The notes beneath the pieces are model-generated. The model saw nothing but the letters and a program-made list of their open reading frames with translations. It was not told where the DNA came from and made no database searches. From Candidatus Altimarinota bacterium (GTDB taxonomy: Bacteria; Patescibacteriota; Gracilibacteria; BD1-5; UBA2023): a stretch of 64,000 nucleotides of DNA. The translations under genes and the position numbers were made by a program. Location: NCBI GenBank assembly GCA_028685185.1, contig JAQUEK010000005.1:62001-126000 (forward strand), in the 5' to 3' direction. Positions 8,494 to 35,220 of the stretch are shown in pieces. How positions within the stretch are numbered: position 1 is the stretch's first letter; each line of letters begins with the position of its first letter.

Positions 8494-9156
8494 ATGGATT
8501 ACAATAGAGATAGAAATAGCAGCAGATCTTGAGGTGGTGGCTATGGTTGAGGTGGTAGAGGTTGAAGAGATTCAGGTAGGAGAGACGGGTGAAGGGCTGA
8601 AATGTTCAGAACTGTCTGTGCTGATTGCGGTAACTGATGTGAAGTTCCTTTTAAGCCTACAGGAGACAGACCTGTTTTCTGTAGCGATTGCTTCAGAAGA
8701 GAGGAAAACTGATGAGGTTGAAGAGATTTTGATAGAGACGATAGAGGTTGAAGAGATAGGAATGATAGAGGAAGAAGAGATAGTTATGATTCTTGAGATA
8801 GGATGATGTTCGAAGCTGTTTGCGATGAATGCGGAAGCAACTGTGAACTTCCATTTAAGCCATCAAGCGATAAACCAGTTTACTGCAGCGATTGTTTCAG
8901 TAAAGTCGATAAGTCTAAATCAAAGAGGCCTGATGACAGCAAGATCGAGTTCGAGAAATTGAATGAAAAGCTTGATATGATAATCAGATTCCTTAATATA
9001 ACTGATGTTAAAACGGAAAAAGCTAAACCTGTAAAAGCTATGAAAAATGAGATTTTAGAGGATATATTTCTTGAAGCAGAAGATGAAATCATAGAATCTG
9101 AAACTCCTGTAAAAGAAAAAGCTGTAAGAAAAACTACAAAGAAGGAATCTATATAA
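8494..9156 (+). CDS. duplicated zinc-ribbon protein with Gly/Arg-rich linkers
   Basis: A 220-residue protein with two copies of the CPR-typical zinc ribbon CxxCGxxCE(V/L)PFKPxxD(R/K)PVxCSDCF: cysteines at 40, 43, 47, 61, 64 and at 107, 110, 114, 128, 131. The first copy is preceded by an RGG-like stretch (RSGGGYGGGRGGRD) and the two are joined by an Asp/Arg/Gly-rich linker (RDFDRDDRGGRDRNDRGRRD). The C-terminal 85 residues are helical and charged, ending in a basic Lys/Thr tail. RGG-type segments next to zinc ribbons suggest RNA or DNA binding. The family is frequent in Patescibacteria but, as far as I know, uncharacterised. Many linker glycines are UGA. Confidence 0.85.
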
Positions 9157-21848: not shown

Positions 21849-22649
21849 ATGACAGCAATGGATATGCCAGTATTAGCTTTTGCAACATGATCCAAGGATT
21901 GAGGATGAAGTTGAGTCAGAAATCTCATAGAGGCTTCTCATCTGAATTCATGACCTTGAGCATTAGGGATAACAAGATTATATGCATATGAGATCATCTG
22001 AATCATCTCAAACCATGAGAACGGGTGAGTGAGAAAGATTGCTGATAAGAATAATATACCATTCAGACATATGACTGATTTCAGCGCAGATAGCTATCTT
22101 AAATATCTGCAAGAGTTCAATCCGAATCTTGTTGCGCTTAGCTGATGGCTTAAATATGTCCTGTGAATTCCATTTAACGGATGCATAAATATACATCCAG
22201 GGCCAGTCGGCGAATATTGATGAGAATGAATGCATGGTCATCATGTACATGAAAAGATCTATACCGATTGGAAAGCCTGAAAAATAGATAGGACTTGTGT
22301 TACAATGCATTTTGTGACTTATGATAAGGATAATTCTGCAACCAAGACCAAATTGTATGATAGATGACCTGTAATTTTCCAATTACCTGTTGAAATAAAT
22401 CCAGAAAACTGTGCAGATGAGAATCTGCAGATAACACCTGATTCCATAGGAAAAGCTGTAAATAGGATGGAACATGTTTATCAGCCGATAATCACAGCAC
22501 TCGTCGCTTCCTGAAAAATCAGATGGAGTTGAGTAGAATGAGATCATGTTATATTTCCGGATTGATATTTCTCACATCTGGAAGTGAATCTGAAAGGGCA
22601 AATCCCTTCTTGTCCAACACTTGAAATCCTTAAAGGATTTCTGGATTAG
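21849..22649 (+). CDS. purN: phosphoribosylglycinamide formyltransferase
   Basis: A 266-residue GAR transformylase of the 10-formyl-THF-dependent PurN family. The catalytic Asn/His are in CINIHPGPVGEYGG, with substrate-loop residues in EGMHGHHVHEKI. The N-terminal nucleotide site reads VLAFATGSKDGGGSGVRNLI, equivalent to VLxSGxGSNLQ with extra glycines, followed by IIGIISNHENGG. The C-terminal part is longer than the usual ~200-residue enzyme, and the usual catalytic Asp region is replaced by a less familiar segment. It catalyses the step before PurL; with PurM this gives the three consecutive reactions GAR to AIR. It ends the operon at TAG. Confidence 0.88.
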
Positions 22650-22788
22650 CAACTCAAGAAAAAATAATCAGATCTTCGTCATGAAAAATGATGGAGATTT
22701 TTTGTATATGAACTGTTTTCAGCATATAATTTTGATTTTCAGACCATTTTATGATAAGATAACGGTAATATTTTTTCATGATTTTGTA

Positions 22789-23547
22789 ATGATGCTATCT
22801 ATATTGCAGCAGATTTGACTGAATGAGAATGAAGCAAAAATCTATCTTGCTTCATTGGAGCTTTGAAATACACAAGCCTGAAGGATTATAAAGCAGACGT
22901 GACTTGCAAGGGCAACGGTATATGACTGACTTGAAAGGCTTATAAAAAAATGACTTGTTATCAAATCCACAAAAAAGGATACGACAGTTTTTTCGCCTGA
23001 TGATCCAGAGAAATTGGAATATTTCTTAGAGCTGCAACAGAAATCAATCAAGAAAGCCATGAATAATCTAGGTTGAATATTGCCTCAGCTTAAGAAACTG
23101 AAAAACCCATATATGCAATTGCCTTCTGTAAGGATGTATGAATGAATCGAATGAATAAAGACTATATTTGATGATTCGCTGTCAGCAAAAGAGATTATCT
23201 ATACCTATGTCAATGTATATGATATGGAAAAGCATATCGATAAGGATATGCATGACGAATATCTGAAAAAAAGGAAGGAATTGAAGATATTCAAGAAATG
23301 ACTTCTTATAGATACGCCATTTTCAAGGAAACATTATGAGAATTATGATAAATCCTGTTCTGAAGCGAGATTTCTTAAAAAAGAAGCGATGCCATTTCAT
23401 ATAGAGATGAATATCTATGATTGAAAGATCAGCTATGTTACATATAGGGATAAGAATCCTATCTGAATAATCATAGAAGATGAAGATATCTACCGTATAC
23501 ACAGAAGTACTTTTGAGATGATCTGGGAACAATCCGAAAAGCTATAA
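22789..23547 (+). CDS. TrmB-family transcriptional regulator
   Basis: A 252-residue DNA-binding protein. Residues 1-75 are the TrmB winged helix: LQQIGLNENEAKIYLASLEL, GNTQAGRIIKQTGLARATVYDGLERLIKKGL, then VIKSTKKDTTVFSPDDPEKL. A coiled coil follows (FLELQQKSIKKAMNNLGGIL), then a C-terminal effector-like domain with VRMYEGIEGIKTIFDDSL, RFLKKEAMPFHIEMNIYDGK and GIIIEDEDIYRIHRSTFEMIW, as in TrmB-like regulators. TrmB proteins are common in archaea and occur in Patescibacteria. The ligand is unknown. It lies 140 bases after purN and 26 before the next gene, so it may regulate either. Confidence 0.9.
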
Positions 23548-23572
23548 AAATAAATCCAAAATAAAAATAAAA

Positions 23573-25132
23573 ATGAATCAACCGTCATCTGCATGACATA
23601 ATATGAAGCGAGTAGCGAAAAAATGAATCAATGAAGTGGTAGAGACTGTCTCAATCACCAAATCTTTATTGTGAACATTGATAAGCTGATGAGCCAAAGC
23701 TGTCAGGGATTCTTTTGTTGCAGAAAAGCCTGATGAACTGACGAAAAACTGATGATTGCATAGTGTCGACATTTTCTCTAAGCATAATATAGAGGATAGC
23801 CTGGCTGTAATAGCAATATGATGAGAATCAAAGAATAAACCGAGATATCCTTCCAGTACCATTGCACAGATGGCATTATGGACTATCAGAAAACAATGAA
23901 AGAGTGAATTACCAGTTACAATCTCACTTAATATTTCACCATGACTTATCTTCAATGAGATAGATAAGGACTTGTTTTATTCTGAAAAAGAGCAGAGGGA
24001 AAGGATAATAAAGGATATGTCGCGAATGTGAGCGACTAAAGAGGAGTTCGACAGGGTAAAATTTGAATTGAGCTCTCAGAATCCTCCATACCTGAGCCTT
24101 ATATGATCCATACAAAAATGATCATTGAATGATTTCCCTTTATATAAGGCATTGCATGATGCATTTTTGGAATGAGGTGAATTCTCGAAAGATATCAAAA
24201 GATGTATTCCTGAACAGGTGAAGTCAAATTGAAACAATGAAATAACATTCCATTATGCGCTTATTGAGATATACCAGATAATCGAGGACTATAAGAAATG
24301 ATTGAAGATCAAGATATGATACAAGAGAGAAAAATTATATGATCAGATTTATATCAATATCCTTAATTGAAATTATCCAGAGCTTTTGAATATTTCGGAT
24401 TCCATCAATCCTATCAATGAAAATGGAAGAACCAAATGAAACGAACTTTTCGGCTCAGTCCATTGGGATGAGAGGGCAGATGAGAATAGCAAGAAACTAA
24501 GATTAAAGAACATTGCACAGACAAGGTTCAAGCAATTGCTTTTTGCAACTCCTATAGTCATTTCGACTATAATATGATGATGATATTTTTACAAGGCGAG
24601 TTATGAGAAAATGAAAAAAAATGCAATCCTTGAGGTGAAGTTCTCTGAATTAAGAAAGAATTCCGATAAGTTCAGAATCATCGATGAACTTAATAAGACG
24701 GCTAAATGATTTGATTATAAACTGAAAAATTCAGAGTACACATTATCTTCAATATATGAATGAAATGATTATAAGCTCTGAAATATAATGCACATAAGTT
24801 CGAACATTGCGCTTTATATCATTGATGTGAATCAATCCATCGTAAACGATCAATGAATGATATATGATAAATATAATAAGCCAAGAGAGCGTTCTATTCA
24901 GAGCAGATGGCTCGAATTGGAAATAGCAAACATAATATCTGAGAAAGCATATGATAAATATGTTTCACATTATGATATATTGAGGGATGTGATACATAGT
25001 GATCTACTTAGTATACTTTGAAATGATGCACGATTCAGCCAGATTTTCGAAATATCGACATGAGAAAAGTGGACTAATACACAAGAACAAAAACTAGAGG
25101 TTTTCAAAGGTTTATACAAAGTCGGAGAATAA
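23573..25132 (+). CDS. hypothetical single-pass membrane protein, 519 aa
   Basis: ATG to TAA with more than 20 UGA-Gly codons. Residues ~10-100 look like a folded domain (VVETVSITKSLLGTLISG, LAVIAIGGESKNKPRYPSST). One transmembrane helix is visible at about 322-340 (LLFATPIVISTIIGGGYFYK), followed by a charged, probably extracytoplasmic region (SELRKNSDKFRIIDELNKTA). There are no cysteine motifs and no recognised family. It lies 25 bases after the TrmB regulator and is probably in the same transcription unit. I cannot assign a role. Confidence 0.72.
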
Positions 25133-25348: not shown

Positions 25349-27205
25349 ATGAAAAAGGATTTTTTTGACTCAATCGCAATTTCATCCAGTGATGAAATTT
25401 CTGAAATTAGGAAATGCAGATGGTGCAATGAAGATTTTGCTATATATTCGAAAGATCTGAAAATGCTTGATAAGTTATCGCCCATAATCGACGGTGAGAA
25501 ATTTTCCTTGATAGCTCCTGATATGTGTCCTGATTGTAGACAGATGAACAGATTGATCTTCAGGAACGAAAGGAAATACTACAATGCAAAATGTGACAAA
25601 TGCTGAAAAAATGAGATCAGCATAGTTTCTCCTGAATCTTGAAAAAAGATAATGTGTGTAAAATGCTGGCAAGAAGAGGATTTTTCAAAATATAGCGAGG
25701 ATTATAAATGAAATTTCAATGATTCACTTAAAAATCTATTCGACAAGGTACCTTATCTTTCCAGGATGATAATAAATATGGAAAATGCAGATTATTGCAA
25801 TCAGGAAACCGATGATAAGAACTGCTATCTGAATGCTGGATGACATTTCAATGAAGATAGTTTCTATAACACCTATTCGATTCATGGAAAGGATACGGTT
25901 GATAATTATTGGGTTATTGAAAATGAGATAGTATGGCAATCGATAAATATCTACAACTCAAGCAAGGTTTTCTATTCGCAATTTATAGAATGAAGCCATG
26001 ATATTTATTTCAGCAATGACCTTAAATGATGTAAAAATGTAATTTTCTGACATTGACTCGTGAATGATGAATATGTCTATAAAAATGAGAGATTGGAAAA
26101 ACCTGAATGGGAAATGAAAGCTAAGGAATTCAAAGATAGATTAAAAACTTATGATTGATTCTTATCCCTGATCAAGGAACATGCAGAATTCATGAATATC
26201 TTTCCAAGGAAAAACGTCTGGAACCTAAGCTCAGAAAATGTCATTTGAAATGAGAATACTCAAGTGAAGGATTGATTTTTAGTTACAGTCTGAGAGATAT
26301 GAGAAAATGTGAGATATTGACATATTTACATGCAGATAAAGGATTCCATGGATATAGAGGCAAATTGATGGTCTGAAAAATCATATAATGTCTCAAGCAG
26401 CATGAAGATGAATTCAGGAATTGTCGTATCTCATAACTTCAGCGAATCAAGAAATATAAATTATAGCTATTATTCTAACTGATGAAGCGATTATTTCGGA
26501 TGTTTCGGGCTTAATAACAAATCTTGCCATATCTTGAACAAAGAATATCCGAAAAAAGAATACGATGAGATGATCAAGAAAATCATAATAGATATGATAA
26601 ATGAATGAAAATGGTGAAATTTCTTTGATCCGATGCTTTCTCCGTATCCGTTCAATGATTCTGTGGCTATGGAATATTTTCCTGTCAATAAGATCATCTT
26701 CATAGATGATTCAACTAAAAAAATCATAAAAGAAATCATTTCCGATGAAAGATGAAGATGAACCGTTTATGTGCTGGAACCGAAAAAATTCATATCAGAT
26801 GCGATCCTTGACTTATGATGAGATGAAAAGATAAGAATAAGATGGAGAACGTCTGAAACTGAGATAAATGTTTCGAGTTCAATTGAGACAATCAAAGCTG
26901 AAGACCTGCCAAACGATATATCTGAAACAAATGAGGATATCTTGAAAAAAGCGATCATATGCGGAGCAAGCGGAAGACTATTCAGGATAATCAAGCCAGA
27001 ATTCGATTTCCATAAGAAATATTGACTGCCATTGCCAAGGGTTCATCCTGATGTCAGGCATATGAATAAGATGAAGAGAAAATCATGAAGGAAAATATAT
27101 CCGAGAATCTGCGATAAATGCAGCAAAGATATATTATCGGTCCATCCTGAAACATCAGATTTCAATGTTTATTGTGAGCAGTGTTATAAGAAGGAAGTCT
27201 ATTAA
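25349..27205 (+). CDS. large zinc-finger protein, paralogue 1 of 3
   Basis: A 618-residue soluble protein. The N-terminus has paired Cys motifs: CRWCNEDF (~26), CPDCRQMNRLIFRNERKYYN (~62), CDKCG and CVKCW. The central part is a run of irregular short repeats rich in Asn, Tyr, Cys and Ser (KNCYLNAGGHFNEDSFYNTY, IENEIVWQSINIYNSSKVFY), suggesting a beta-solenoid. The C-terminus contains AIICGASGRLFRIIKPEFDF, LPLPRVHPDVRHMNKMKRKS and a last finger ICDKCSKDI...CEQCYKKEVY. The same N- and C-terminal plan recurs in 27223-28929 and 29587-31305. Most glycines are UGA. I recall similar proteins in Patescibacteria under inconsistent names, but no known function. Nucleic-acid or protein binding through zinc is inferred only from the fingers. 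Confidence 0.8.
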
Positions 27206-27222
27206 TCAATTAAAAAGCTATC

Positions 27223-28929
27223 ATGCAACAGGAAAAAACAGTTGAAAGCAAAAAATGTTTTCATTGCCAGGAAAATTTTAAGATCACAGATTGGGACTTA
27301 GGTTTCTATGAAAAGATATCTCCGGTTTTTGCTTGAGTGAAATATGATATCCCAACCCCGAAGCTTTGTTATAGATGCCGAGAACAGAGAAGATTATCGT
27401 TCAGGAATGAAAGAAACCTATATAAGTCGAAGTGCGAATTGACCTGAAAGGAAATAATATCTATATATTTTCCGAAAAGCTGATATATTGCATATGATGA
27501 AACCGAATGGCATTCAGATAAATGGAGCCCTTTGGATTATTGAAGGGATTTTGATTTTTCAAGAGATTTTTTCAGCCAATTCTGAGAATTGCTTAAAGAA
27601 GTACCGAGAATTCCTCTTTCTGTTGTATTCAATGAAAATTCGCCATATGTGAATCAATGTTGGAATATAAAAGATTCATATTTATCCATAAATTGCTGAT
27701 TCTGAGAAAATCTTCTGTATTCTGAAGTCGCATATCACTCGAAAAATATCGTGAATTGCTATTCTGTGGATTCGCTTGAATTTTGCTATGAATGCATAGA
27801 TTGCCAAAAATCATATTTGCTTTTCAATTCCCAGAATTGCAGCAATTGTTCCAATTCAAGATTCTTGCATAATTGTACAGGATGCATAGATTGCTTCTGC
27901 TGCATAAACCTTTCAAACAAAAGATATTGTATATTCAATGAACAGTATTCGAAAGAGGAATACATGGAAAAATTATCGGATTTAACCGATCTGAAACATG
28001 TTAAAAACGCTTTTGAAAATCTGAAACTTAAACATCCTCAGAAAAATCTTCATATTTCATGAAGCGAAAATGTTTTATGAGATTACATCGTGGATTCAAA
28101 AAACTGCAATCAATGTTATGATGTATTTTCAACCTCTGACTCGAAATATTCTTTCAATATAGATTCGAATCTGAAAAATTGAATGGATCTGAGCTATTGC
28201 GCTGAATGAGAGCTTATATATGAAGCTATCAGTGTAGCTGGCTATAATAACCTGTTCTGTCATCTTGTAATAGGTTCCAATAATCATTACTGCAACTTAT
28301 GTCTCAATAATTCTTCTAATTGTTTCTGATGTGTATGACTTAAGGATAATTCTTCCTACTGCATCCTCAACAAGCAATACACTCGCGAAGAATATGAGAC
28401 TCTCGTACCAAAAATAATAGAACACATGAAAACAACATGAGAATGGTGAGAATTCTTTCCATCATCAATTTCTCCATTCTGATACAACGAGACAGTGGCA
28501 ATGGAATATTATCCAATATCCAGTAGAGATGCGATCAATCGCATCGCTACTGATTGAAAACCGATCTTCAAATGGTCCACCTACGAAAACCCAAAGCCAG
28601 ATGTAACAAAGATAATACCAGCATCAAAGCTTCCAGAAAACATAAAGGACATACCAGATGATATAACCAACTGGGCAATAGAATGTGAAGTAACTCAAAA
28701 ACCCTTCAGGATAATAAAGCAAGAGCTTGAATTCTACAGGAAGCATGATCTGCCAATCCCAAGAAGACATCCAGACCAACGTCACCTAGACAGGATGAAG
28801 CTAAGGAATCCAAGAAAGCTATATGACAGAAACTGCGACAGATGCAACAAAGAAATAAAGACAACCTTTTCTCCAGAAAGGCCAGAGATAGTCTACTGTG
28901 AGGATTGCTACAACAAGGAAATCATTTAG
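27223..28929 (+). CDS. Cys-rich zinc-finger protein, paralogue 2 of 3
   Basis: A 568-residue paralogue, 17 bases after the first. N-terminal fingers CFHCQENF and CYRCREQRRLSFRNERNLYK are followed by a dense Cys-repeat region (NCYSVDSLEFCYECIDCQKS, NCTGCIDCFCCINLSNKRYC, SYCAEGELIYEAISVAGYNN) with a Cys-x-x-Cys ladder, as in stacked solenoid coils. The C-terminal third is TQKPFRIIKQELEFYRKHDL / PIPRRHPDQRHLDRMKLRNP followed by CDRCNKEIK...CEDCYNKEI. At DNA level this third is nearly identical to that of paralogue 3, indicating recent duplication or gene conversion. The TAG stop is part of an 18-bp palindrome. Confidence 0.82.
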
Positions 28930-28944
28930 GAGACCGGTCTCCTA
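28927..28944. repeat. 18-bp perfect palindrome containing the stop codon
   Basis: TAGGAGACCGGTCTCCTA, whose first three bases are the stop codon of paralogue 2. The same sequence with one end mismatch lies at the stop of paralogue 3 (31303-31320). No T run follows, so it is not a standard intrinsic terminator. Confidence 0.75.
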
Positions 28945-28985
28945 ATGATAAGGAAGTTTATTGATTATAAATCAAGTGAAATCAT

Positions 28986-29576
28986 ATGGATAAAGAAAAA
29001 AATAATGGTTATACTGAAATTTTATTAGCAAAGGAAGTTGATCTGCAATGAATCATTGATCTGCAAAGAAAAAATCTTGCTTTTATAGTTTCAGATGAAA
29101 CTAAAGAAAATGATGGTTTTGTCAGCATAGAGACAAATATCGATCTTTTAAGTGATATTTCAAATGATATTTGAATCATTGTCGCAAAATATAAGAAAAA
29201 GGTAATCTGATATCTTTTTGCTGTTACTGTTTGAATATCAAAAAAGATGCCGATATTGGATAAGTTCGTTGAAGATATATGACAGTATGAATACATGTGA
29301 AAAAATGTGGATAAATATAGATATTGCATATTATGACAGATATGCATAGATAATGAACATAGAGGAATGTGAATCTTTGAGAAATTATATGCAAGCTTCA
29401 TAGATAACCTGAAATGAGATTATGACATATGAATATGATGAATCTGTTCGAATAATCCAAGATCATTACATGTTCATATGAAAAAGCTGTGACTTGAGGT
29501 TGTTTCGGAATATTCTGAATGATGAAAGCAATGGTATATAGTCGTATTGGATTTCAAGAAAATTTTATTTATTTAA
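28986..29576 (+). CDS. GNAT-family N-acetyltransferase, 196 aa
   Basis: A single GNAT domain. The acetyl-CoA-binding motif A reads LGQICIDNEHRGMGIFEKLY (~residues 118-137), the R/QxxGxG/A loop being HRGMGI. It is preceded by the core strand of motif D (IGIIVAKYKKKVIGYLFAVT) and followed by IGIGGICSNNPRSLHVHMKK and LGLEVVSEY, the motif B end. The substrate is unknown. It is inserted between the second and third Cys-rich paralogues with short gaps, so it may belong to the same operon and could modify a product of it. Most glycines in the CoA loop are UGA. Confidence 0.88.
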
Positions 29577-29586
29577 TTTTAGATAT

Positions 29587-31305
29587 ATGTCAGATGAAAT
29601 GATGATCGAGAAAAAAAACTGCAGATTATGCTCAGAAGATTTTGTAATTACAGATAAGGATCTGGAATTTCTTGATAAGATATCTCCGGTTTTCGCTTGA
29701 GAGAGATTTAATATCACATTGCCTACATTATGTCCGCGCTGCCGTGAACAAAGAAGGCTCTCATTCAGGAATGAGAGAAATATCTATAGAAGGAAATGTG
29801 ATCTGACCTGAAAGGATATCTTGTCGAATTATTCGCCAGACAAGCCTTATAGAGTATTTGAATACAAGGATTGGTGGTCGGATAAATGGGATGCGATGGA
29901 TTACTGAGATTCTTTTGATTTCAAAAAGACATTTTTCGAGCAGTTCAGCGAATTATCATTAAAAGTTCCTAAATATAGCTTATATAATATAGATACGGAA
30001 AATTCGGATTATAGCAATTACACGATACATAGCAGAAATAACTATTTGGTTTTCTGAGCTATGGAATCTGAAAACTGATATTTTTCAAGCAATATGATAA
30101 GAAGTAAGGATAGTCTTGATTGCAATTATCTGTTTGATAGTGAGTTGTGCTATGAATGTTCAAACGTTGAAAATAGCCATAACTGCTTTTTCTGACAGGA
30201 ATCAGTAAAATGCAATGAATGCTATTTCATGTGTGATTGCAGGAATTGCGATTATTGCATAGGATGTTGGAATCTTGATTGAAAAAAATATCATATATTG
30301 AATAAGCCTGTTTCAATGGAGGAATTCAATATCATGAAAAACAAGATATTCTCTTCATATTCTGATCTTATGGATTTCAAGGAAAAATATGGAAATATTT
30401 TGAAAAATCAAGCTATACATAGATCTAACCATGGATTCAATAATGAGAACATAGAATGAGATTATATATACAATTCCAAAAATATACAAAATAGCTTCAT
30501 AGTATATGATAGCGAAAATGTCAGGAATTCTACAAGATTCGCCAATCAAACGAACAGTAGTGATATTTACTGATGCTTTGAGTGATATAATCTTTATGAT
30601 TCGATATCTTGCGATTTCTGAAGCAATATGAGATTCTCAAAAGACAGCGAGAAATGCAAACAATCATTTTATCTTGATATATGTGATAATTCCTCCAACC
30701 TCTTCTGATGCATCTGACTTCGCAACTCCCAATACTGCATCCTCAACAAGCAATACACCAAAGAGCAATATGAACAACTGGTACCGAAGATAATAGAACA
30801 CATGAGAACAACCTGAGAATGGTGAGAATTCTTCCCATCATCAATTTCTCCATTCTGATACAATGAGACAGTAGCAATGGAATATTATCCAATATCCAGT
30901 AGAGATGCAATCAATCGCATCGCTACTGATTGAAAACCAATCTTCAGCTGGTCCACCTATGAAAATCCAATCCCAATCGTTTCAAAGACAATCCCTGCAG
31001 AAAAACTGCCGAATAATATTTCTGAAGTCCCTGATGATATATTGAACTGGGCAATACTTTGTGAAATAACTCAAAAACCCTTCAGGATAATAAAGCAAGA
31101 GCTTGAATTCTATAGAAAGTATTCACTCCCTATTCCAAGAAGACATCCTGATGTCAGGCATATGGACAGGATGAAACTGAGAAATCCAAGAAAGCTTTTT
31201 GAAAGGAGCTGTGACAAATGCAACAAGGAAATCAAGACAACATACTCTCTTGAAAGACCCGAGATAGTCTACTGTGAAGATTGTTATAACAAGGAAATCA
31301 TTTAG
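29587..31305 (+). CDS. Cys-rich zinc-finger protein, paralogue 3 of 3
   Basis: A 572-residue paralogue starting 11 bases after the acetyltransferase. N-terminal fingers NCRLCSEDF and LCPRCREQRRLSFRNERNIY are followed by the shared SNYSPDKPYRVFEYKDWWSD segment. The central region has repeated Asn/Ser/Cys units (NCNYLFDSELCYECSNVENS, CNECYFMCDCRNCDYCIGCW). The C-terminal third is almost identical in DNA to paralogue 2 and ends CDKCNKEIK...CEDCYNKEI. N-terminal and central parts have diverged much more than the C-terminal third, so the latter is either strongly constrained or homogenised. The stop codon again lies in a GGAGACCGGTCTCC palindrome. Confidence 0.82.
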
Positions 31306-31320
31306 GAGACCGGTCTCCTG
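31303..31320. repeat. second stop-codon palindrome
   Basis: TAGGAGACCGGTCTCCTG; it differs from the copy at 28927 only in the final base, and the stop of paralogue 3 is its first codon. Confidence 0.7.
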
Positions 31321-34188: not shown

Positions 34189-35220
34189 TTATAGATTAGA
34201 GATTATTGTATTTATGATGAACCATGCTGATACTGAGACTGTAAGACCTATGATTCACATGGTGATAGCTTCTTTTCATTTCTGTACCTGATTATTAAGT
34301 GATCATAGTGCTATCTTATAAGCACCTATTATTATCATGATCATCGCAACCGTTGCTGCGATTCATAATAACCAAGTTGTTAAAGAATTTATCACTTTAG
34401 GAAGATCATCAAATCATATATCTCACTTTCTTAGTTTATCTGAATTGACTCAAAGATAAGTCGGAGTACTTACTGGTGCAGCTGCTACAGCAGCTGGATC
34501 CTCGCTTTCCTCCTCAGACTCGAAAAGTTTAGTTACATTATCCCATGCTTCAGAAGCAGTGCTTGCAACACTATCCCATGCATCTCAAATCATTGATGTC
34601 TCTTCTCAGGCCAAGGCATTTCATTCAACAGAAGAATCTGTATCTCGAGAATCAGCAGCAGGAGCATCTCAGGCCAAGGCATTTCATTCAACAGAAGAAT
34701 CTGTATCTCGAGAATCAGCAGCAGGAGCATCTCAGGCCAAGGCATTTCATTCAACAGAAGAATCTGTATCTCGAGAATCGGCAGCAGGAGCAGTTTTTGA
34801 TTCTGCTGCAGGAGTAACTTGAGGTATTGATTCTGATCAATAAACTTCGTTTACAGACTCTCAATTAGCAATTCTCTCATTTTGACTTGCTTCTATACCT
34901 GAAACGATTGCTTTATTCGAGTATGTTTCAATATCGTTTTTATAGCTATTCAATAATGCTTGCTCTTCTTTTAAATCAGTTTCTGAAAATTCTGATTTAT
35001 GTTCATCAATGAATTTCTGTTGTTCTATGGCATTTTGTTCAGCAGTTTTCTGTTGTTCTGCATATATGGTCTGATTTTCTTTTGCTATTGTAATATTCTC
35101 AGATGCCCTTAATCTTGTTGTGCTAGATGAAGGTAAGGAATTTGTAGACGTAGAAGCAAAAGATAAAGTTCAATTAAATAAAATCAATGAAAATATAAAT
35201 ATAATTCTTATTTTTTTCAT
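34189..35220 (-). CDS. secreted protein with tandem repeats and T4SS-pilin-like C-terminus
   Basis: A 343-residue protein. It has a signal peptide (MKKIRIIFIFSLILFNGTLS), then a Gln/Glu/Lys-rich coiled coil (~45-110), an acidic Pro/Ala/Ser region containing three 21-residue repeats (~143-205, unit GNALAGDAPAADSRDTDSSVE when glycines are UGA; first and last units vary), and WDSVASTASEAWDN spacers. The C-terminus is a pair of membrane helices joined by a basic loop (MIMIIIGAYKIAL...NNQVQKGKEAITMGIIGLT...AWFIINTIIS), the pattern of the TrbC/VirB2-like 'T4SS pilin' family of CPR bacteria. The repeat region would be a surface stalk. No other type IV secretion genes are in the window. Confidence 0.72.
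34604..34792. repeat. three tandem 63-bp repeats
   Basis: Units begin at 34604, 34667 and 34730, each with TCTCAGGCCAAGGCATTTCA at its left. They are identical except for an A/G change late in the third copy. The unit is 21 codons, so copy-number change would keep the minus-strand frame. Confidence 0.95.

What the first reader, a model, noticed from the sequence alone, without database searches (positions are those of the whole stretch)
25349..31305. Tandem cluster of three large Cys-rich zinc-finger proteins plus a GNAT
Three 568-618-residue paralogues share N-terminal CxxC fingers, a central Cys/Asn/Tyr-rich solenoid-like region and a C-terminal RIIKQELEFYRK...PRRHPD...CDKC...CEDC module. 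No function is known to me. Their size, tandem expansion, an embedded acetyltransferase and conserved 3' palindromes suggest a dedicated, possibly undescribed system (nucleic-acid or surface-related binding, or zinc storage).
Basis: partly seen in the sequence, partly recalled or inferred. Interest (0 to 1): 0.65.

Follow-up and report, generated by a model that had tools for sequence, protein, structure and literature searches.

The report
Zinc-ended cysteine-solenoid repertoire with motor ATPase
Three neighbouring genes belong to an undescribed family of tiny host-dependent bacteria whose proteins have fixed zinc-binding ends and a variable, cysteine-lined spiral middle, and whose presence is almost perfectly tied to a dedicated secretion-type motor ATPase, which suggests a recognition or delivery system nobody has described.

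Summary
The three paralogues are real (genetic code TGA=Gly). Each is Zn-module / solenoid A / solenoid B / Zn-module; the two Zn modules are homologous to each other, and so are the two solenoids. AlphaFold is confident (pLDDT 92). The solenoid has 12-residue coils with Cys only at inward positions (43% against <1%); its only good PDB match is the Tenebrio antifreeze beta-helix (Z 9.5). No Pfam, NCBIfam, PHROGs or PADLOC model covers the proteins. The family reaches 40+ scored matches per genome in tandem arrays across Gracilibacteria and Peregrinibacteria. Within some genomes the ends are homogenised (97-99% DNA identity for one pair on different contigs) while solenoids are as different as between species.

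Main new result: a dedicated VirD4/TraG-like ATPase subfamily, apparently lacking an N-terminal membrane helix, occurs in 16/18 family-positive and 0/41 family-negative genomes of the order, often adjacent. In five other lineages a lone solenoid lies directly behind such an ATPase, once fused to it. The GNAT is not conserved; the 3' palindromes are not family-specific. I infer a repertoire of adaptors or cargo served by one motor. Partnership is well supported; secretion, nucleic-acid binding or defence is undecided.

The parts
25349..27205 (+). Family member 1 (618 aa, divergent, low Cys)
   Evidence: table-25 ORF; 34% identical to P0002; family HMM 616 bits
27223..28929 (+). Family member 2 (568 aa)
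   Evidence: table-25 ORF; C-terminal PF23477 above cut-off; 3' third 97-99% DNA-identical to a paralogue on another contig
29587..31305 (+). Family member 3 (572 aa), the modelled protein
   Evidence: table-25 ORF; AlphaFold pLDDT 92.1, pTM 0.91 with 109-row alignment
29611..29961 (+). N-terminal zinc module of member 3 (aa 9-125)
   Evidence: C12/C15/C49/C52 nearly invariant; homologous to the C-terminal module, hhalign E 3e-24
29965..30414 (+). Solenoid A plus capping helices of member 3 (aa 127-276)
   Evidence: 12-residue coils; Tenebrio AFP 1EZG Z 9.5, rmsd 2.5, 80 of 82 residues; Cys at inward phase only
30415..30756 (+). Solenoid B of member 3 (aa 277-390)
   Evidence: homologous to solenoid A, hhalign E 3e-38
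31045..31302 (+). C-terminal zinc module of member 3 (aa 487-572), CxxC-x17-CxxC
   Evidence: C542, C545, C563, C566 conserved; weak LIM-type matches in PDB at 535-564
28986..29576 (+). GNAT acetyltransferase inserted between members 2 and 3; a passenger, not a conserved part
   Evidence: PF00583; absent from all other loci and from the recurrent families of the flanking-gene tally
22546..23547 (+). TrmB-type HTH regulator upstream of the array (HTH at residues 87-155, so the true start is probably near 22780)
   Evidence: PF01978 E 2e-14; TrmB genes are enriched beside arrays, about 15 of 39
28926..28945 (.). 20-bp perfect palindrome over the stop of member 2
   Evidence: not family-specific
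31304..31319 (.). 16-bp palindrome after the stop of member 3
   Evidence: not family-specific

Best explanation
The three proteins are members of a large, diversifying family of apparently cytoplasmic proteins that work as partners of one dedicated VirD4/TraG/HerA-like motor ATPase (such ATPases are hexamers in known relatives), encoded elsewhere in this genome (contig C3, next to two other family genes). Each protein is a rod: two 12-residue-coil, Cys-lined beta-solenoids between two homologous Arg-rich zinc modules. Shown: the architecture (predicted structure), arrays, within-genome homogenisation of the ends, and co-occurrence, adjacency and fusion with the ATPase. Inferred: the constant zinc modules dock on the common ATPase (or on nucleic acid it handles), the variable solenoid surfaces bind different targets, and TrmB regulators control which arrays are expressed. 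Most likely outcome: the proteins are adaptors or cargo of a type-IV-secretion-derived motor used by these host-dependent bacteria towards hosts, prey or invading DNA. I put the physical or functional partnership with the ATPase at about 0.85, and 'adaptor or cargo repertoire for delivery or recognition' at about 0.4.
For: Co-occurrence: order, 16/18 family-positive against 0/41 negative genomes, Fisher 1e-12; phylum, 26/29 strong positives against 0/351, Fisher 3e-37. Adjacency across TGA=Gly and standard-code lineages, gaps usually 30-115 nt. In five other CPR genomes a lone solenoid protein lies directly behind a related ATPase (G067, G303, G346, G190), or is fused to it in a 629-aa ORF (G287). 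In G194 and G335 separate zinc-module and solenoid genes lie next to such an ATPase; in G230 the ATPase itself carries a CxxC-x17-CxxC finger above cut-off. Constant ends and variable middle: within G403, G417 and G419 the C-terminal zinc module is 76-85% aa-identical, solenoids 30-36%, equal to between-species values; one pair is 97-99% identical in DNA. Family members are rarely over 80% identical (3 of 188).
Against: The dedicated ATPase has no evident N-terminal membrane helix, unlike true coupling proteins, so a secretion role is doubtful. Three strong family-positive genomes of one GTDB family (G163, G358, G366) have only a shorter relative of the ATPase, and in G433 and G434 none was found. 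The window's own array is not beside the ATPase. Fisher values ignore shared ancestry, and most loci were chosen by their family match. No binding partner or substrate is known. Homogenised ends are clear only in TGA=Gly genomes, not in Peregrinibacteria.
Confidence: 0.45

Rival explanations
1. Nucleic-acid machine inside the cell: the Arg-rich zinc modules bind DNA or RNA, the HerA/VirD4-like ATPase pumps it, and the solenoids are recognition or mimic surfaces. This would be DNA processing, uptake or defence rather than protein delivery.
For: Conserved motifs CPDCRxQRRLxxRNER and PRRHPDxRHxxRMxLRNPRK; the ATPase has no evident N-terminal membrane helix and matches HerA/DUF87 and DNA-transfer domains; weak PADLOC HerA and mad8 matches; pentapeptide-type rods appear among weak fold matches.
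Against: No nuclease or relaxase recurs in the neighbourhood tally; PADLOC matches are partial; no nucleic-acid-binding fold has been demonstrated.
Confidence: 0.3
2. Metal or thiol store: the zinc modules and Cys-lined cores hold zinc, iron or polysulfide.
For: Cys about 6.4% of residues; Cys ladders in the solenoid core.
Against: Cys sit only at buried, every-third positions and alternate with Ser, Val, Leu, as expected of core packing; member 1 has few Cys; storage would not need variable surfaces, dozens of copies or a motor ATPase.
Confidence: 0.06
3. Surface or antigenic-variation proteins exposed to hosts or phages.
For: Constant ends, variable middle, arrays and gene-conversion tracts.
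Against: No signal peptide or membrane helix evident; Cys-rich; no covalent anchor.
Confidence: 0.1
4. Selfish or neutral tandem duplication with no common function beyond a generic scaffold.
For: High copy variation and patchy presence.
Against: Near-perfect tie to one ATPase subfamily, conserved capping and zinc residues, a fused form, and few disrupted frames beyond TGA codons.
Confidence: 0.05

Closest known systems
Treble-clef zinc fingers zf_Tbcl (PF13451) and zf_Tbcl_2 (PF23477) / TIGR04272 CxxC-x17-CxxC
   Same: Both end modules resemble a zf_Tbcl plus zf_Tbcl_2 pair; the stand-alone zinc protein of G194 passes both Pfam cut-offs.
   Different: In the long proteins each module keeps about one intact finger and the other is degenerate; these models cover under 15% of the protein.
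Tenebrio molitor antifreeze protein (1EZG)
   Same: 12 residues per coil, inward residue every third position, Cys-rich core; Z 9.5, rmsd 2.5 over 80 of 82 residues.
   Different: Predicted model only; 8% identity; no TxT ice-binding face in the consensus; bacterial, with no secretion signal seen; two solenoids with helical caps and zinc ends. Convergence is likely.
VirD4/TraG/TrwB type IV coupling proteins and HerA ATPases
   Same: The partner ATPase matches PF10412, PF02534 and PF01935 above cut-offs and PF12696 near its cut-off.
   Different: A separate subfamily without an evident N-terminal membrane helix, found only in family-positive genomes of the samples. PMC12102498 reports 5,713 VirD4 homologues in Patescibacteria, only 148 near virB4, and leaves their role open.
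X-T4SS effectors with a conserved C-terminal recognition domain (from memory)
   Same: Constant C-terminal module, variable remainder, a VirD4-type partner.
   Different: No cognate immunity gene or toxin domain recognised, zinc modules at both ends; translocation untested.
phrog_15341 (Campylobacter phage Cys-repeat protein)
   Same: 12-residue Cys repeats, annotated there as insect-antifreeze-like; the G194 solenoid matches it at E 8e-19.
   Different: Beside an unrelated superfamily-2-type helicase, no zinc modules; the similarity may be repeat convergence.

Membership tests
zf_Tbcl_2 / TIGR04272 zinc finger (end modules) | CxxC-x17-CxxC | tested here: met
   P0003 C542/C545/C563/C566, conserved in the family
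zf_Tbcl_2 / TIGR04272 zinc finger (end modules) | curated model score | tested here: inconclusive
   P0002 passes PF23477 (29.1 against 27), P0003 does not (16.8); TIGR04272 cut-off 36 not reached by either
Tenebrio-type antifreeze beta-helix (fold) | 12-residue coils with the inward residue every third position | tested here: met
   Cys autocorrelation peaks at lag 12; inward phase 43% Cys against <1%; Z 9.5 to 1EZG
Tenebrio-type antifreeze protein (function) | regular TxT ice-binding face | tested here: not met
   per-position composition of 109 sequences shows no Thr ladder
T4SS coupling protein (partner ATPase) | VirD4/TrwB-type ATPase domain | tested here: met
   PF10412, PF02534 and PF01935 above cut-off in dedicated members
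T4SS coupling protein (partner ATPase) | N-terminal membrane helices | tested here: not met
   hydropathy scan finds no N-terminal hydrophobic segment of membrane-helix strength in the dedicated ATPases; the generic G194 relative has one
T4SS effector / substrate | transport into another cell through a T4SS | not testable with these tools
   sequence data only
Known anti-phage defence system | match to a defence-system model set | tested here: not met
   no PADLOC match for P0001-P0005; only partial HerA/mad8 matches for the ATPase
Known full-length protein family | model covering the solenoid or the whole protein | tested here: not met
   Pfam, NCBIfam, PHROGs, PADLOC and PDB sequence searches give only the zinc finger or weak matches

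The most novel reading that the evidence does not exclude
A protein-based recognition repertoire in host-dependent bacteria: dozens of paralogues per genome with constant zinc ends and diversifying Cys-lined solenoids, all served by one dedicated VirD4-derived motor; functionally a new class of host- or prey-targeting or self/non-self recognition machine, and an answer to what some orphan VirD4 homologues of Patescibacteria do.
Probability: 0.3. Interest if true: 0.92.

Novelty: categorically new. Interest (0 to 1): 0.72.

Why it matters
Patescibacteria carry thousands of VirD4-type ATPases, mostly far from T4SS genes and without known role (PMC12102498). Here a specific subfamily gets a partner: a very large, unnamed protein family that takes up much coding capacity in some 1.2 Mb genomes. 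A fold known to me only from beetle antifreeze proteins appears in bacterial proteins, with a fusion that makes a direct physical prediction. If the repertoire idea holds, it offers a testable route to how episymbiotic or predatory bacteria match hosts or meet foreign DNA.

Tried and rejected
GNAT as component: rejected. Palindromes as family element: 12 genome-wide sites against 0 for the reversed pattern, so a general feature of this genome. Known enzyme fold: the whole-protein Foldseek and VIA searches give only weak hexapeptide-type rods, Z below 4; viral library likewise, no E below 0.001. Phage or plasmid origin: no match to P0003 in phages or plasmids and only one partial IMG/VR contig. 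Phage relative phrog_15341: its neighbour is a different helicase, so the ATPase link does not extend there. Literature searches for the family, and for VirD4 with Peregrinibacteria, found no description; CPR family content (PMC6744442), Gracilibacteria hypervariation (PMC6851277) and metaproteomics (PMC11452946) main texts do not mention it in the passages searched.
Full report
WHAT IS THERE. The window belongs to a 1.17 Mb genome (G000; window = C1:62001-126000) that reads TGA as glycine. No library model covers them: Pfam and NCBIfam recognise only the treble-clef finger at one end, PHROGs gives weak hits to an unknown family, PADLOC nothing, and a profile search of the PDB only weak LIM-type matches at the last finger. 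The genome holds further copies on contigs C3 and C7.

ANATOMY. With a 109-row alignment AlphaFold gives pLDDT 92.1 and pTM 0.91 for member 3: zinc module, solenoid A, helical cap, solenoid B, helices, zinc module. The end modules are homologous to each other (hhalign E 3e-24) and so are the solenoids (E 3e-38). The solenoid repeats every 12 residues; Cys fills 43% of the inward positions and under 1% of the others, with Cys-Cys spacing at multiples of three peaking at 12. Modelled alone (pLDDT 81), its best solved relative is the beetle antifreeze protein 1EZG, Z 9.5, rmsd 2.5 over 80 of 82 residues; the next unrelated entry has Z 4.4. The matched part of the model is residues 3-83 of the domain. 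I read this as a shared fold, probably convergent, not as common descent or antifreeze function.

DISTRIBUTION AND ARRAYS. The family occurs in 49 of 380 sampled phylum genomes (about 29 with strong matches) and in 18 of 59 of the order, up to 40 matches above threshold in one 1.3 Mb genome (matches can be fragments). Related contigs are labelled Gracilibacteria, Peregrinibacteria, Peribacteria and Abawacabacteria. Arrays of up to ten genes in 20 kb are common; in the collected loci 161 neighbour pairs are tandem and same-strand. In some TGA=Gly genomes long genes alternate with a roughly 490-aa form that has the two solenoids but lacks the zinc modules.

CONSTANT ENDS, VARIABLE MIDDLE. Member 2 and a paralogue on contig C7 are 97-99% identical in DNA, with third codon positions 90-97% identical, over about 150 codons of the C-terminal part, while the solenoids are about 50% identical or less in DNA. 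In G403, G417 and G419 the C-terminal zinc module averages 76-85% aa identity within the genome, the solenoids 30-36%, no more than between genomes. At sites with the same amino acid, codons agree more often within G417 and G419 than between genomes in the C-terminal link and zinc region (0.80-0.83 against 0.53-0.60), and less so in the solenoids (0.67-0.75 against 0.64-0.67). This is the pattern of concerted evolution of the ends with independent solenoids. Peregrinibacteria arrays do not show it.

THE ATPASE LINK. A Pfam tally of 72 genes flanking family genes returned a VirD4/TraG/HerA-type ATPase 15 times and TrmB regulators 8 times; no acetyltransferase was among the recurrent families. 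Where adjacent, the ATPase usually lies 30-115 nt from a family gene on the same strand. Searching the same genomes with the ATPase showed that nearly all 59 order genomes have two or three generic paralogues, but the full-length dedicated type (E below 1e-140) occurs in 16 of 18 family-positive and 0 of 41 family-negative genomes (Fisher 1e-12). In the phylum sample 25 genomes carry it, all family-positive, plus G000. Exceptions: G163, G358 and G366 have a shorter relative; in G433 and G434 none was found. The P values ignore phylogeny, but the contrast holds within one order. The dedicated type lacks an evident N-terminal membrane helix.

OLDER FORMS. In G194 a 98-aa zinc protein, a 301-aa double-solenoid protein and the ATPase lie together as separate genes; G335 is similar. 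In G067, G303, G346 and G190 a single-solenoid protein of about 230-240 aa directly follows a related ATPase (from a short overlap to a 19-nt gap), and in G287 the two are one 629-aa ORF. In G230 the ATPase carries a CxxC-x17-CxxC finger above the curated cut-off. Fusions and persistent operons of this kind are the usual genomic sign of physical partners. All five lone solenoids found are next to, or joined to, an ATPase.

REGULATION AND PASSENGERS. About 15 of 39 TrmB genes above cut-off in 11 genomes lie within 5 kb of a family gene (counted by hand); if such regions were 10% of the genome the binomial P is 2e-6, at 15% 3e-4. The window has one at 22546-23547. The GNAT has no homologue in any other locus. 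The palindrome occurs at 12 sites in the genome.

MECHANISM. Shown: architecture, arrays, homogenised ends, tie to the ATPase. Inferred: zinc ends dock on the ATPase or on nucleic acid it handles; solenoid surfaces recognise different targets. Whether the outcome is delivery, recognition of foreign DNA or something else is open. The published survey of Patescibacteria T4SS found 5,713 VirD4 homologues with only 148 near virB4 and did not rule out that they are exapted for other functions (PMC12102498); the present linkage gives one subfamily a partner.

NOVELTY. The ATPase half is of a known kind. The partner family, its double-solenoid architecture and the repertoire organisation match nothing in the libraries or papers I could search; I rate it categorically new at the level of protein family and system, with the caveat that only open-access papers were searchable.

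Noticed in passing
window 8494-9153 +: 220-aa protein with repeated CxxC-x17-CxxC fingers (PF23477, E 5.5e-34), related to the family's zinc modules.
   Followed up: partly
window 34189-35220 -: T4SS pilin (PF18895) about 3 kb from the array, with tandem amino-acid repeats in its N-terminal half.
   Followed up: no
window 28926-28945, 31304-31319 and 10 further sites in G000: Dispersed perfect or near-perfect palindrome AGGAGACCGGTCTCCT; 12 sites with up to 2 mismatches, 0 for the reversed pattern. Function unknown.
   Followed up: partly
L125-L127, L133: Alternation of long (zinc-ended) and short (about 490 aa, without zinc modules) family genes; a short gene is preceded by a long one in 11 of 26 cases, gaps 20-116 nt. 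Possibly paired subunits.
   Followed up: partly
L204 2887-3312 (Campylobacter phage CPt10): Phage protein with 12-residue Cys repeats annotated as insect-antifreeze-like, directly behind a helicase gene.
   Followed up: partly
window 23480-25132 +: 550-aa protein without family match between the TrmB gene and the array; one probable membrane segment by eye (around residues 355-375).
   Followed up: no
L145 4398-6122 (G230): VirD4-like ATPase with its own C-terminal CxxC-x17-CxxC finger.
   Followed up: partly
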